Source of the DNA: Unio delphinus
Taxonomy: Eukaryota; Mollusca; Bivalvia; Unionida; Unionidae
Length of the DNA stretch: 64,000 nt
Reading direction: 5' to 3'
Assembly: GCA_029339505.1 (NCBI GenBank)
Contig: JAQISU010000033.1
Coordinates: 4,539,001 to 4,603,000, forward strand
The position numbers were made by a program, and so were the translations under genes. Under the pieces are notes generated by a model, which searched no databases, was not told the origin of the DNA, and saw only the letters and a program-made list of their open reading frames with translations. Shown here in pieces: positions 25,491-58,028 of this stretch (its first letter is position 1; the number at the start of each line of letters is the position of its first letter).

Positions 25491-25625
25491 TCATCGGGAG
25501 AAGACTACTACTTCTGTATACGTTGTATCGGATGGGGAACCTCGGATGCCGTGGCTGCTGTTTTCATCCTGTGCGTTAGAACTGAACTCAAGCTCTACGT
25601 AGTTCAGCTCTTCAGTTTTGTTCAC
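25491..25625 (-). CDS. Receptor terminal exon with ITIM and ITSM
   Basis: Last coding exon of the Ig receptor gene on the minus strand: acceptor TTTTCGCAG before 25625, 44 codons, TGA at 25491-25493. The peptide contains LNYVEL (ITIM consensus) and TTYTEV (ITSM consensus) and ends VVVFSR. Its entry phase 0 matches the exit phase of the exon at 28610-28792. In vertebrate receptors, phosphorylated ITIM and ITSM tyrosines recruit SH2-domain phosphatases (SHP-1/2) or SAP-type adaptors. The presence of both motifs argues for an inhibitory or switch-type signalling tail; for this organism that is inference. Confidence 0.72.
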   Translation of the reverse strand: MNKTEELNYVELEFSSNAQDENSSHGIRGSPSDTTYTEVVVFSR

Positions 25626-28609
25626 CTGCGAAAATATTTTTATTTATTATTTCAATTTAGTTAACTACAAATGCTGTCAGTGATATATTTCAGAATTAAT
25701 GATATTGTCAGATTTGTAATTTCACACATTCATTCCTGCTTGATACTGATTAATAACTGTGCAATTATTTTGGTCAAATACACACAGTCCATTTCTTTTC
25801 CATACAACTCATAACAAATCTGGATGTAGCACTTATTTGGACACTATTCACAGCAATGTTGTGTCTATCCTCCAGGTTGGTACATACATACATACATACA
25901 TACATACATACATACATACATACATGCATGCATACATACATACATACATACCATTAGTTTAAAAGATATTTTTAAAAAATAAGTACCAATCCCATTCAAA
26001 ATGCCCATCATTACTGCGATTAGTATCCGACTACGTATATATATATATATATATATATATATATATATATATATATATATATATATATATATATATATAT
26101 ATATATATATATATATAGAGAGAGAGAGAGAGAGAGAGAGAGAGAGAGAGATAACGATTTAATATTGAATTTATTCAACGAGCTTCATAATTTAATATTA
26201 AATCATTACCCAATTGAGATTCTTTTCATTACATAGTTTCTATTTAAGTGGAAATTATTTAGATTGAAAGAAAAACTAATAATTTCGTTCATTCTGACTG
26301 GCGGTGCACAAGTCATTTGTTGTGCATAAAATATAGTCCCAAACAAAGTTGACCTATTAAAAGTATATTGCACTTTTTTGCGCAATAAACATAACATTTA
26401 TAACGATAAAATCATTGTTCCAAACGGAATTATCAATGCGATGTGATGCCACATTGATTGATATGGTAACAGTAGGCCAGGAAAAGATGTTTACCCTAAA
26501 ATGTTTCTTTCAAAACCCAAATATTGCATTGTTGCGATTTTTATGTGAAGAGGAATACTGGATGGACATTCCCACATTTACTTTGTAATGCATTAATGAT
26601 CGGATATGTGCAGTATTTTGCTGGAACAATTGACTGGACAGAAGGCCTAAACAATTTTTCTTCATTTTTGAGTCGGATTTCCATCCTCTATTTATTGCGT
26701 AAAAAGATGCTGTTGTTCAATAAAGTTCTTTCAGTTAGGATACCCATTGATATTCAAATTCTTCTGTGAATAGAGGTGAGTTTATTTCCTTCTGTAAGTT
26801 AAGATTTAAATCTCGATTGTGTATACGATAGATTCTATATCTATGTTACAGATATATTGTTTGCCCCCACCCCCCAACCACTCACACCCCCCCCACACAC
26901 ACTGCCATCAAATAAGCAATACCCTTAGTTTAACTTCTTATTGTTGTTTTTGTCTTGTAGTTGCACGCTATGTTTCTCATTATGACATTGTTAAAAGAAA
27001 CCTCAGTGGGGGTAACATATCCGAATTCAGACAACCGAGATAATGTTTCCTTAATTTTCTGTCGCGAGTCGAATTCAAAAATAGCCAGCAGAAATGTTCA
27101 TTTAAAACCAAGCATGTCAGAAGGCGGGGTTAAGAACGGTTTCGCACGAACCCAGCCAATCAGTAAAGAGTATCCTGCACAATTATTTCTTGGGCTTATT
27201 TGGACTAAGCAAAATTACATAGCGTGATATTTTAATATGCGGTAATAGAATAAAAATGTGAGACTGTACATACTATAGGAAAACTATACCTACTATATAT
27301 ATATATATATATATATATATATATATATATATATATATATATATATATGTATAGGAATCACATTCAAAATCCAATCGAATAAAAAAACCTCGGCCTTAGC
27401 AACTGATCCCTGATAACGAAAATATGATAAAACGATACGATACATATTATTTTGTATACATTTAATTAAGAAGAGACTTAGCGTGCCGAGCTTCATTTCA
27501 ATGAAAGTTTTCTTCAGCGAGTGGTATAAGATAAACACATCGTGCATAATGTGCGTTTTATGTATACCCTATGCGTATACACATACTTATGTTTTTAAAG
27601 GAGTTAACACTGATTACATCAAACTGCGTAAAGGTGATGGGAATGAGTTTTTCACCACTGTGTTCAGTGTGTCTGCAACAAAATTTAGTTTTCAGCTGTT
27701 GCTGTTATTCCCAATCATTACTTAAATTGAATCTTTTTATGATTTCCTAGACTTATTCGTAGCGATTAAACAAATGGTAGAGACACTTGGGAACGTAACA
27801 TTGGCTAAAATTAAGAAAGAACATAGCTATAAACATCGCATACCTAATGTCCCCAACAGTGAGTTCATCCAAATGAGTGGAAGAAGATGTTTTCAAACGT
27901 TTAAAGTTATTTACAGATAATCCAAACCATTATTATTCTTACGGATAATTATTATATTGATCATTTTTCTCTGTTTGTGTCTGTCTGTCTGTCTCTATCT
28001 CTGTATATGTCTATCTGTCTCTGTCTGTCTGTCTGGTTGTCTGTCGGTTTCTCTCTCTCTCTCTCTCTCTCTCTCTCTCTCTCTCTCTCTCTCTCTCTGT
28101 TGGCTTTGTCTGTCTTTCTCACCACACACAGAAAAAACAGAGACAGACAGATCTGGATCAACTGAGGCGAAACTGTAATGCTAAATGAATGAGAGAGAGA
28201 GAGAGAGAGAGAGAGAGAGAGAGAGAGAGAGAGAGAGAGAGAGAGAGAGATGAATCAGTTGAGATAAGACTGACTTGCTCACTGTCCAGTCCGCATAGTG
28301 AGAGTGAGCGATGATGAAGAATATAGACGAATCCTCTTCTACGTCGAAATCTAACAGTAATTTAGTATCGCAATAGTTGACAGTAATTTAGTATCGCAAT
28401 TGTTGACAGTAATTTAGTATCGCAATGGTTGACAGTAATTTATTATCGCAATGGTTGGTTAGTTTGCAATTTTGCTGTAGATTTCAAGTACAGATATTTC
28501 TCAATGGCTTCAGTACCTTCAAAACTGAATATATTCGGCGCCTTAAAGCGAACCAAATGGAAACGTTACATAATATTACGTAGGCGATATCGACTAGAAC
28601 AGACCTTAC
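25626..28609. other. Intron of the receptor gene
   Basis: No exon is recognised. It contains (ATAC)n, (TA)n-(GA)n, (TA)n at 27295-27348, the (CT)n/(GA)n pair at 28050-28250 and four 27-bp repeats GACAGTAATTTAGTATCGCA at about 28345-28455. Confidence 0.55.
28050..28250. repeat. (CT)n and (GA)n tracts in inverted orientation
   Basis: CT repeats at about 28050-28098 and GA repeats at about 28190-28250 are complementary. The flanking GTCTGTCTGTC and GACAGACAGA strings also pair, giving an inverted repeat with a loop of about 90 bases. Confidence 0.75.
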
Positions 28610-28792
28610 ATGTACCCACACGAGGTTCATGTCATGCTGTAACCCAGAATAGAGAGGAGGAGACGGTAAAGGGAATTGTAAATCTTTCACCTGTGTATTT
28701 TCTGACTCAGTCTCCTCGTTAATACAGCTGTTTGAATTTGTGGTTGACGAACGTTGTTGAATTGCAGCATATGCGTTGTTGATATTCATATA
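28610..28792 (-). CDS. Receptor cytoplasmic exon 2 (YMNI, AYAAI, LYSGL)
   Basis: Minus-strand exon of 183 nt, phase 0 to 0: acceptor ATTTTTCAG before 28792, donor CAT|GTAAGG after 28610. The peptide starts YMNINNAYAAIQQR, is Ser/Thr/Asn/Glu-rich in the middle, and ends with FPLPSPPLYSGLQHDM and NLVWVH. YMNI is a YxN site of the kind bound by Grb2-type SH2 domains; AYAAI and LYSGL are Yxx(I/L) sites that miss the -2 residue of a strict ITIM. A Pro-rich stretch could bind SH3 domains. No protein family is recognised. Confidence 0.65.
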
Positions 28793-57180: not shown

Positions 57181-57506
57181 TTGTTTGTTTGTTTGTTTGT
57201 TTGGGATTTTTAACGTAGCTTTAACAATTTTTCAGTCATATCGCTACGATGTCTGCTGTGAGGCAGTTTATAGTGATGTCTAGCACTGAGGCATCATGCC
57301 GCAGACATGTAGCATGATGTCCCACCCAGTCACATTATCCTGCCACCAGGCCGACCAGTCCTAACACTAACCTCTTAATGCTGAGCTTCAAGCGAGGCAA
57401 CTGTTAGTACCATTTTTTTAAGTCTTTGGTATCACTCGGCCGGGGATCGAACCCACGACCTCCCGCTTCCGGGGCGAACGCTCTAACCACTGGGCCACCG
57501 GAGCGG
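57181..57506 (-). mobile_element. tRNA-derived SINE with target-site duplication
   Basis: Read on the minus strand it begins with a tRNA-like head: box A TGGCCCAGTGGTTAGAGCG and box B GGTTCGATCCC. A body with ATAAACTGCCTCACAGCAGA and AATTGTTAAAGCTACGTTAA follows, and a (CAAA)n tail. A 12-base duplication TACGACTTYTGT flanks it (57169-57180 and 57507-57518, one mismatch). I recall this body from molluscan V-SINE/RUDI-type elements. It sits in the intron before the V-type exon. Confidence 0.85.
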
Positions 57507-57961
57507 TACGACTTCTGTCAATTATACATTATGTTTACAAGTCATTTTAGCTTTGCACGTTAATCGATACCTTTCCATTTAAATTTTTATGTTTAAATGA
57601 TAACTAGCTGGTATTATTTTCCCGTACAAATTAATTATTTATTGAGAGATTCTGACAAGATTTTCAATTTATAAAAAAAAAATATATATGTATATATTTG
57701 ATAAATAATAATATATAAAATTAAAATGTCTATTCAAAATAAACAAATAAAAAACAACAACAACGAATTGCAACTAACCAGATTGGAACAAACTCGATGA
57801 CCGACCAGAGCTCTTAGACCAACAAATTTAAAATGACCCTGACGGTTCAAGTTCGGTAAGGCCTTACATTAAATTCGTTTCATGCTGGCAATGATGTGTG
57901 CTATTTCGTATTTTTGTACAATATATTCATTTCTTATGAGAATTCTCCCGTACTCTCTCAC

Positions 57962-58028
57962 CTGTTAAAATTACAGTAAATCCCAAACACAAAGCTGCGT
58001 AAATAATTAAGGTGGTTTGGAATACTTC
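57962..58028 (-). CDS. Signal-peptide exon of the receptor
   Basis: Minus-strand exon of 67 nt: acceptor CTTTTTTCAG before 58028, donor ACAG|GTGAGA after 57962. It encodes EVFQTTLIIYAALCLGFTVI then LTG, a hydrophobic signal core, exiting in phase 1 like the V-type exon. There is no ATG in it, so the initiation codon must be in an earlier exon beyond 58,028, which I could not identify. Confidence 0.6.

What the first reader, a model, noticed from the sequence alone, without database searches (positions are those of the whole stretch)
25491..58028. Invertebrate Ig receptor with a full ITIM + ITSM cytoplasmic tail
Ten minus-strand exons join with consistent phases: signal peptide (exit 1), V-type Ig (1-1), five Ig exons (1-1), transmembrane (1-1), tail exons (1-0, 0-0, 0-stop). 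The tail has six tyrosine motifs: MTYAQV, YMNI, AYAAI, LYSGL, LNYVEL (ITIM consensus) and TTYTEV (ITSM consensus). This arrangement is known from vertebrate paired, SLAM/PD-1 and KIR-type receptors. A protostome gene with the same logic would be a new or little-described immune receptor family. The exon chain is read from sequence; the signalling role is inferred.
Basis: partly seen in the sequence, partly recalled or inferred. Interest (0 to 1): 0.87.

Follow-up and report, generated by a model that had tools for sequence, protein, structure and literature searches.

The report
Clustered ITIM-tailed immunoglobulin receptor gene
The sequence holds what looks like an intact gene for a cell-surface receptor with six antibody-like domains and a tail resembling the off-switch tails of vertebrate immune receptors, and it sits in a tandem cluster of related genes in an unnamed animal-like genome.

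Summary
The exon chain is real, with corrections. On the minus strand it encodes signal peptide, V-type Ig, five similar Ig domains, one transmembrane helix and a three-exon tail: eleven exons, not ten. The "signal" exon has no ATG; a one-codon exon (ATG|GTGAGT, window 60775) is the best candidate start. LYSGL is probably intronic and KFYVHL was overlooked. All six tail tyrosines sit in YxxΦ (0 of 20,000 shuffles), ending in a strict ITIM (LNYVEL) and ITSM (TTYTEV) 27 residues apart. The ITIM/ITSM exon was found eight times in the 2.5-Gb assembly, all in one 386-kb minus-strand stretch of one contig. Five copies keep both motifs with mostly silent change (nonsyn/syn 0.16, P 0.0003-0.0026 by transition bias). 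Three closely similar copies lost the ITSM and carry another YxxΦ. Type-1 Ig-exon number differs between units (5, 2, 1, at least 1), and Ig exons show no net amino-acid constraint. Most likely it is a tandemly expanded inhibitory receptor family signalling through SH2-domain phosphatases. ITIM-type Ig receptors are already reported from oysters, so this is a new variant of a known kind. Expression, inhibition and species are untested; three of the four best-read units carry lesions.

The parts
60773..60775 (-). candidate first coding exon, one codon ATG followed by donor GTGAGT
   Evidence: the single hit of a filter for phase-0 ATG exons with a strong donor in the upstream 6 kb of the window; donor in the top 0.11% of GT sites; 11 of 11 bases identical in units A and D. 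Candidate only: of eight other ATG|GT pairs over the 80% identity filter, three also keep ATG and GT in both A and D, with weaker donors
57962..58028 (-). signal-peptide exon EVFQTTLIIYAALCLGFTVILTG, entry phase 0, exit phase 1
   Evidence: present in units A and D with the same splice sites; no signal-peptide predictor was run
56580..56864 (-). V-type Ig exon, phase 1-1; four cysteines kept in A, C and D
   Evidence: Pfam V-set 30.5 bits, cut-off 26; copies in A and D
54947..55240 (-). type-1 Ig exon 1, phase 1-1
   Evidence: Pfam Ig_3 and I-set over cut-off
50024..50317 (-). type-1 Ig exon 2, phase 1-1
   Evidence: Pfam Ig_3 and I-set over cut-off
45350..45643 (-). type-1 Ig exon 3, phase 1-1
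   Evidence: tblastn with Ig1 and Ig2
42540..42833 (-). type-1 Ig exon 4, phase 1-1
   Evidence: tblastn with Ig1 and Ig2
38892..39185 (-). type-1 Ig exon 5, phase 1-1
   Evidence: tblastn with Ig1 and Ig2
36599..55492 (.). tandem repeat array (start-to-start spacing 3648, 2810, 4674, 4923) that multiplied the type-1 Ig exon; four of the five units also hold a reverse-transcriptase-like fragment
   Evidence: direct repeats; RT-like frames seen; Pfam found nothing in the one RT fragment tested, so that label is recalled from its motifs
33532..33687 (-). transmembrane exon, phase 1-1, basic stop-transfer RRKRQK, no charged residue inside the helix
   Evidence: copies in A, B, D and G
31172..31350 (-). 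tail exon T1 (phase 1-0): KFYVHL and MTYAQV
   Evidence: copies in A, B, D and G; C versus D exon 3/177 differences, flanks 27/370, p = 0.008
28691..28792 (-). tail exon T2, short form (phase 0-0): YMNI and AYAAI
   Evidence: donor GT at the same place in A, B, C, D and G
25491..25625 (-). terminal tail exon T3 (phase 0-stop): ITIM LNYVEL and ITSM TTYTEV, tyrosines 27 residues apart
   Evidence: eight matches genome-wide, all on this contig; excess of silent change
16776..16910 (-). second copy of T3 (C'), same frame, both motifs and the splice acceptor kept
   Evidence: also found
12349..18895 (.). segmental duplicate of 20836-27647 that carries the second T3
   Evidence: blastn, 87-93% identity in the five longest of its blocks

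Best explanation
The finding is the one intact unit (C) among the four best-read units of a tandem family of single-pass Ig receptors in a 386-kb stretch of contig C35. Shown by sequence: a leader, a V domain, five Ig domains from exon duplication, an uncharged TM helix, and a tail whose six tyrosines are all in YxxΦ, ending in ITIM LNYVEL and ITSM TTYTEV. Shown by comparison: the last tail exon is held mainly by silent change, while type-1 Ig exons change without net constraint and vary in number between units. Inferred: the ectodomain binds a fast-changing or variable ligand on another cell or a microbe; clustering lets a Src-family kinase phosphorylate the tail; the ITIM-ITSM pair, spaced as recalled for bidentate sites of vertebrate receptors, recruits an SH2-domain phosphatase of the SHP-2/Corkscrew type that lowers nearby kinase signalling; YMNI could recruit a Grb2-type adaptor. 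Units B, E and F, with the ITSM lost and NIYLDI gained, would be signalling variants or relics.
For: Open, in-phase exon chain; V and the two type-1 Ig exons scanned over Pfam cut-offs. All 6 tail tyrosines in YxxΦ, 0 of 20,000 shuffles. T3 search of the whole genome: 8 matches of 8 candidates scored, all C35 4,462,739-4,849,173, minus strand. Five class-I T3 copies (C, A, C', D, G) keep LNY[VI]EL and TTYTEV, 5 of 5, with 11 silent and 6 replacement differences on 30 and 102 sites, P = 0.0003, 0.0026 at transition bias 5. T1 between C and D is less diverged than its flanks, p = 0.008. Type-1 Ig exons within C: dN/dS 0.9-3.8, one-ratio omega 1.57. V exon A versus C more diverged than its one alignable flank, p = 0.008. 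Type-1 Ig copies: A 1, C 5, D 2, G at least 1.
Against: No transcript, protein or binding data. Three of the four best-read units carry lesions: A (2-nt frameshift in Igb, Iga donor lost, stop in T1), D (stop in V, altered donor of its first Ig), B (no leader or V found, Ig cysteine lost, ITSM lost). Omega above 1 in the Ig exons is not significant (p = 0.22; M2a over M1a p = 0.14), and introns 250-500 bases from the Ig exons are mostly 7-9% diverged, about as much as the exons. T1 and TM show no silent excess; T1 A-C and A-D are not significantly below flanks, and T3 divergence is below its flanks in 5 of 6 pairs, none significantly. With B included the T3 test is not significant (P = 0.12); class II alone 3 silent, 3 replacement, P = 0.12. 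G has KFYVHP for KFYVHL. YxxΦ is also an endocytic sorting signal. Ig-exon acceptors score weakly (top 12-20% of AG sites).
Confidence: 0.6

Rival explanations
1. An Ig-family cell adhesion molecule whose YxxΦ tail motifs are clathrin-adaptor sorting signals, with no phosphatase signalling.
For: Every tail tyrosine is in YxxΦ, which is also the AP-2 signal (recalled). The best PDB sequence matches of the type-1 Ig are adhesion or guidance proteins (Contactin-2, DCC, Contactin-1).
Against: A sorting signal needs neither L nor T at -2 (recalled); T3 keeps LNY[VI]EL and TTYTEV in 5 of 5 class-I copies. Tandem expansion with variable Ig number is unusual for neural adhesion genes (recalled). I-set matches in the PDB may lean to adhesion proteins simply because many are solved.
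Confidence: 0.2
2. A decaying cluster: all units, C included, are unexpressed relics.
For: A, B and D carry lesions; B, E and F share the same TAA in T3; most exons show dN/dS near 1.
Against: C has no lesion over eleven exons and about 2.4 kb of coding sequence although the introns around its duplicated exons differ by several per cent; T3 shows a silent excess, P 0.0003-0.0026; T1, T2 and T3 of G are open.
Confidence: 0.12
3. The five type-1 Ig exons are alternatives, one or a few used per transcript, so the receptor is an isoform series and not a fixed six-Ig protein. This can hold together with the best explanation.
For: All five are symmetric 1-1 exons of 294 nt with near-identical splice surroundings, so any number can be included in frame; their acceptors are weak; two amino-acid types occur, Ig1/Ig3 and Ig2/Ig4/Ig5, with 9 fixed differences.
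Against: No splice-regulatory element was looked for; additive Ig arrays are the commoner outcome (recalled).
Confidence: 0.3
4. The tail motifs are chance tyrosines in intron-like sequence and the gene ends soon after the TM exon.
For: Single motifs are common: a strict ITIM arises in 24% of shuffles; LYSGL is such a case.
Against: 0 of 20,000 shuffles put all tyrosines in YxxΦ; T3 class I changes mostly silently; frame and motifs are kept in units up to 386 kb apart.
Confidence: 0.03

Closest known systems
Oyster IgIT and CgIgIT2 (Crassostrea gigas Ig receptors)
   Same: Ig receptors of a mollusc, called inhibitory in the titles of two papers (reference list of PMC11999971). The review text gives CgIgIT2 five Ig domains, a TM domain and an ITAM, at odds with the cited title.
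   Different: The present family has a V-type first domain, a terminal ITIM+ITSM exon, a tandem cluster and two tail classes; whether the oyster genes share these was not seen.
Vertebrate ITIM/ITSM Ig receptors (PD-1, Siglecs, CEACAM1, PECAM-1, LILRB, KIR, FCRL)
   Same: Ig ectodomain, uncharged TM, strict ITIM followed by ITSM; the spacing of 27 residues is like the 20-30 recalled for these receptors; tandem gene cluster with variable Ig number, as recalled for KIR, LILR and FCRL.
   Different: No orthology shown: PDB sequence matches are generic Ig families. No charged-TM activating partner seen. The resemblance may be convergent.
Arthropod Dscam
   Same: A protostome multi-Ig receptor whose tail can include an ITIM (Daphnia, as stated in PMC6851185).
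   Different: No fibronectin type III match; here the variety seen lies in exon and gene copy number.
Snail FREPs
   Same: Ig domains in a mollusc immune family (PMC11999971, passage).
   Different: No fibrinogen match; this one has a TM helix and a signalling tail.

Membership tests
ITIM/ITSM-bearing Ig-superfamily receptor (functional class) | Ig domains in the ectodomain | tested here: met
   V exon and two of five type-1 exons over Pfam cut-offs; the other three are 77-92% identical to these or each other
ITIM/ITSM-bearing Ig-superfamily receptor (functional class) | single TM helix followed by a basic stop-transfer | tested here: met
   read from sequence; no dedicated TM predictor was run
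ITIM/ITSM-bearing Ig-superfamily receptor (functional class) | strict ITIM [SIVL]xYxx[IVL] and ITSM TxYxx[IV] in the tail | tested here: met
   LNYVEL and TTYTEV, kept in 5 of 5 class-I copies; ITSM absent in 3 of 3 class-II copies
ITIM/ITSM-bearing Ig-superfamily receptor (functional class) | phosphorylation-dependent SHP-1/SHP-2 recruitment and inhibition | not testable with these tools
   needs experiment
Paired receptors (KIR, LILR, Siglec type) | tandem cluster of related receptors | tested here: met
   eight T3 matches in 386 kb, same strand; units A, B, C, D and G wholly or partly read
Paired receptors (KIR, LILR, Siglec type) | activating partner with a charged TM residue and short tail | tested here: not met
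   0 of 5 TM exons read (A, B, C, D, G) has a charged residue in the helix; TM exons of E and F were not read, and the genome-wide TM search did not complete
Paired receptors (KIR, LILR, Siglec type) | orthology with a vertebrate family | tested here: inconclusive
   only generic Ig matches in PDB sequences; wide protein search switched off
IgIT/CgIgIT2 family | sequence homology with the oyster proteins | not testable with these tools
   no mollusc protein set available
Dscam | fibronectin type III repeats | tested here: not met
   no fn3 match up to E = 1 in the joined one-Ig model
FREP | C-terminal fibrinogen domain | tested here: not met
   no fibrinogen match up to E = 1 in the joined one-Ig model

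The most novel reading that the evidence does not exclude
The whole 386-kb stretch works as one combinatorial receptor locus: same-strand Ig-type exons (18 read so far in units A, B, C, D and G, symmetric in phase 1 where inspected) are spliced within and across units to two classes of tail (ITIM+ITSM, or ITIM plus NIYLDI without ITSM). That would give an invertebrate a large repertoire of inhibitory receptors with switchable output, with Ig copy number differing between individuals.
Probability: 0.1. Interest if true: 0.85.

Novelty: new variant of a known kind. Interest (0 to 1): 0.58.

Why it matters
Tandem, fast-changing clusters of ITIM/ITSM receptors are, as far as recalled, described from vertebrates. 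A cluster of this build in an animal outside them (taxon untested here), with the signalling exon conserved and the binding domains not, would be either deep common inheritance or a striking convergence. It makes a direct question testable: does an ITIM-ITSM pair work through SHP-2 in animals that, as far as recalled, lack the SAP adaptors that read ITSMs in lymphocytes?

Tried and rejected
LYSGL as a tail motif: rejected (stops in A and G), although its donor is kept in A, C and G. A single ATG-bearing signal exon upstream of V: no hit with the filter used. Significant positive selection in the Ig exons: not reached. Structure prediction of Ig1 (mean pLDDT 48.2) and V (46.3): too poor, no fold search made. 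Relatives: the tail in viral contigs, 10 pattern matches and no confirmed relative; the Ig1 exon in prokaryote genomes, 206 pattern matches and no confirmed relative. PDB match of a 42-residue T3 peptide: none at E up to 10. Wider protein search: not possible. Genome-wide searches with the V, TM, T1 and Ig1 exons did not complete (V: 58, 98, 103, 111, 113, 117, 121, 125, 130; TM: 104, 114, 118, 120, 127; T1: 105, 128; Ig1: 106), so units that lack T3 or lie elsewhere are not excluded.

Literature: ten paper runs. I saw passages of PMC11999971 (and its section 15 whole), PMC5877582 and PMC6851185; all other papers only as search listings; the IgIT/CgIgIT2 papers only as titles in a reference list; PMC6994640 is not held. 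Of the 8 papers (ITSM with invertebrate and immunoglobulin) no title or abstract start concerns an invertebrate ITSM; the switch-motif term occurs in 0 of the 15 listed of 30,050 papers. These are listings, not proof of absence.

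Full report
OBSERVATION. The window is C35:4,539,001-4,603,000 (+) of an unnamed assembly of 2,505,324,503 bases in 1,246 contigs. The exons claimed on its minus strand were located and joined by script. Eleven exons, from 58028 to 25491, join in the stated phases without an internal stop into 797 residues with the short second tail exon, or 824 with the long one. A crude splice-site score, with recalled consensus frequencies, ranks leader, V, Ig, TM and tail donors in the top 3% of GT sites; acceptors range from the top 0.1% (leader) to 10% (T2), and those of the type-1 Ig exons only reach the top 12-20% of AG sites. 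Pfam puts the V exon over the V-set cut-off and the two type-1 Ig exons scanned (Ig1, Ig2) over the Ig_3 and I-set cut-offs.

START OF THE GENE. The leader exon EVFQTTLIIYAALCLGFTVILTG begins at a splice acceptor in phase 0 and has no ATG, in this unit and in A and D. A filter for phase-0 ATG exons with a strong donor gave one hit in the upstream 6 kb of the window, ATG|GTGAGT at 60775, identical over 11 bases in A and D. Eight other ATG|GT pairs passed the looser filter, and three of these keep ATG and GT in both A and D with weaker donors, so this stays a candidate.

TAIL. The tail has six tyrosines: KFYVHL, MTYAQV, YMNI, AYAAI, LNYVEL, TTYTEV. All six have I, L or V at +3 (0 of 20,000 shuffles), and a strict ITIM and strict ITSM occur together in 1.3% of shuffles. 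LYSGL lies beyond the T2 donor that is present in 5 of 5 units read and is a stop in A and G; it is dropped, although the longer donor exists in A, C and G. The ITIM and ITSM tyrosines are 27 residues apart, counted from the sequence.

A CLUSTER. Neighbouring DNA and tblastn of the exons show further units, all on the minus strand. Unit A (4,700,937-4,675,069): leader, V, one type-1 Ig, four other Ig exons, TM, T1, T2, T3; of the four, three were found over Pfam cut-offs and Igb only weakly. Unit B (4,647,660-4,634,451): two Ig exons, TM, T1, T2, T3; no leader or V found. Unit C: the window gene, with five type-1 Igs and no match to A's other Ig types. Unit D (4,501,175-4,462,739): leader, V, two type-1 Igs, TM, T1, T2, T3. 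Unit G (4,869,229-4,849,042): one type-1 Ig, TM, T1, T2, T3; no leader or V found up to 4,889,000. A search of the whole genome with the T3 peptide gave eight matches out of eight candidates scored, all on C35 between 4,462,739 and 4,849,173, minus strand; these add units E and F, of which only T3 and its flanks were examined, and confirm a second T3 (C', window 16910-16776) inside a segmental duplicate.

TWO TAIL CLASSES. T3 of C, A, C', D and G keeps LNY[VI]EL and TTYTEV (5 of 5). T3 of B, E and F reads LNYEEL, has NIYLDI, and has a cysteine and a TAA where the ITSM lies in class I (3 of 3). B, E and F differ by 1.5-5.2% in the exon, so the loss is probably one event that was copied. Whether class II works is open. 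In the rest of the tail: MTYAQV in C, D and G, MAYAQV in A, MTYAQE in B; AYAA[IV] in C, D and G, lost in A and B; KFYVHL in A, C and D, KFYVHP in G, KFSVHL in B.

LESIONS. A has a 2-nt frameshift in one Ig exon, a lost donor and a TGA in T1; D has a TGA in V and an altered donor of its first Ig; B lacks a found leader and V and has lost an Ig cysteine. C has none. T1, T2 and T3 of G are open.

SELECTION. T3 class I: 11 silent against 6 replacement differences on 30 and 102 sites, ratio 0.16, P = 0.0003; with transition bias 2, 2.87 and 5 the P is 0.0008, 0.0013 and 0.0026. None of the six removes a motif; the one inside the ITIM is V to I. The test counts nucleotide differences and treats them as independent. 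Against it: T3 divergence is below its flanks in 5 of 6 pairs but never significantly; with B included an earlier test gave P = 0.12; class II alone gave 3 and 3, P = 0.12. T1 shows no silent excess, though C-D T1 is less diverged than its flanks, p = 0.008, the A-C and A-D pairs not significantly. T2 (A, C, D) ratio 0.37, P = 0.06. TM pooled ratio 0.85 and V 1.02. Type-1 Ig exons within C: dN/dS 0.9-3.8; one-ratio omega 1.57, not different from 1 (p = 0.22); M2a over M1a p = 0.14. Ig1 and Ig3 differ from Ig2, Ig4 and Ig5 at nine fixed residues, five of them at positions 49-54. Among the six pairs within C across these two types the exon is more diverged than its 200-base flanks in 6 of 6, with p below 0.05 in 5 of 6; but introns 250-500 bases away are mostly 7-9% diverged, so the near flanks may have been evened out by gene conversion. 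V: A-C exon 41/282 against its one alignable flank 13/198, p = 0.008; C-D p = 0.08; A-D flanks not alignable. The plain reading is a conserved signalling end and an ectodomain without net constraint; positive selection is suggested, not shown, and decay of A and D may add to it.

MECHANISM. Shown: anatomy, motifs, conservation of T3, clustering. Inferred: ligand-driven phosphorylation, SHP-2/Corkscrew docking on the ITIM-ITSM pair, a possible Grb2-type site at YMNI, and dampening of activating signals, perhaps in hemocytes. The statements on docking rest on recalled knowledge of vertebrate receptors. No activating partner was seen: 0 of 5 TM exons has a charged residue in the helix.

PRIOR ART. 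A 2025 review cites oyster papers whose titles call CgIgIT2 an immune inhibitory receptor and IgIT-mediated signalling inhibitory (PMC11999971, reference list); its own text calls the CgIgIT2 motif an ITAM. CgSiglec-1 has two I-set domains and inhibitory effects (PMC5877582, passage). PMC6851185 says that Daphnia Dscam tails can include or exclude an ITIM, while shrimp Dscam has none (passage). So the kind is known; the tandem cluster with an ITIM+ITSM exon, two tail classes and Ig-exon copy variation is what this adds, as far as these searches show.

VERDICT. An intact gene by sequence with a real motif tail, part of a clustered family; a new variant of a known kind. Function, expression and species remain untested.

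Noticed in passing
window 1-12000, continuing into L011 (C35:4529001-4539000): Polinton/adintovirus-like element (name recalled): separate frames match an integrase core (below cut-off), a phospholipase A2-like domain, a Pox_A32-type ATPase, an AAA domain and an HNH endonuclease. Described only; frames searched one by one.
   Followed up: partly
window 36599-55492: Four of the five Ig-exon repeat units carry reverse-transcriptase-like fragments copied with the exon, so most of the tandem duplications look younger than that insertion.
   Followed up: partly
window 57200-57510, minus strand: tRNA-derived SINE-like sequence with a (CAAA)n tail; short similar pieces recur at several places in the cluster. 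Looks like a mollusc SINE from recall only.
   Followed up: no
C35:4634451, 4750926, 4812330: Class-II T3 exons share one TAA and a NIYLDI motif and are closely similar with their flanks, so this tail type was itself copied recently.
   Followed up: partly
C35:4680349 (unit A T1) and C35:4500496 (unit D V): Both nonsense codons are TGA; where C has CGA in T1 (fits CpG decay) and AGA in V (does not).
   Followed up: no
C3:20.7-21.3 Mb, C49:26.7 Mb, C134:5.6-6.0 Mb and C35:1.28-1.33 Mb: Dense arrays of I-set matches elsewhere in the genome, perhaps giant muscle proteins and other Ig genes; 150 of 1162 candidates were scored.
   Followed up: no
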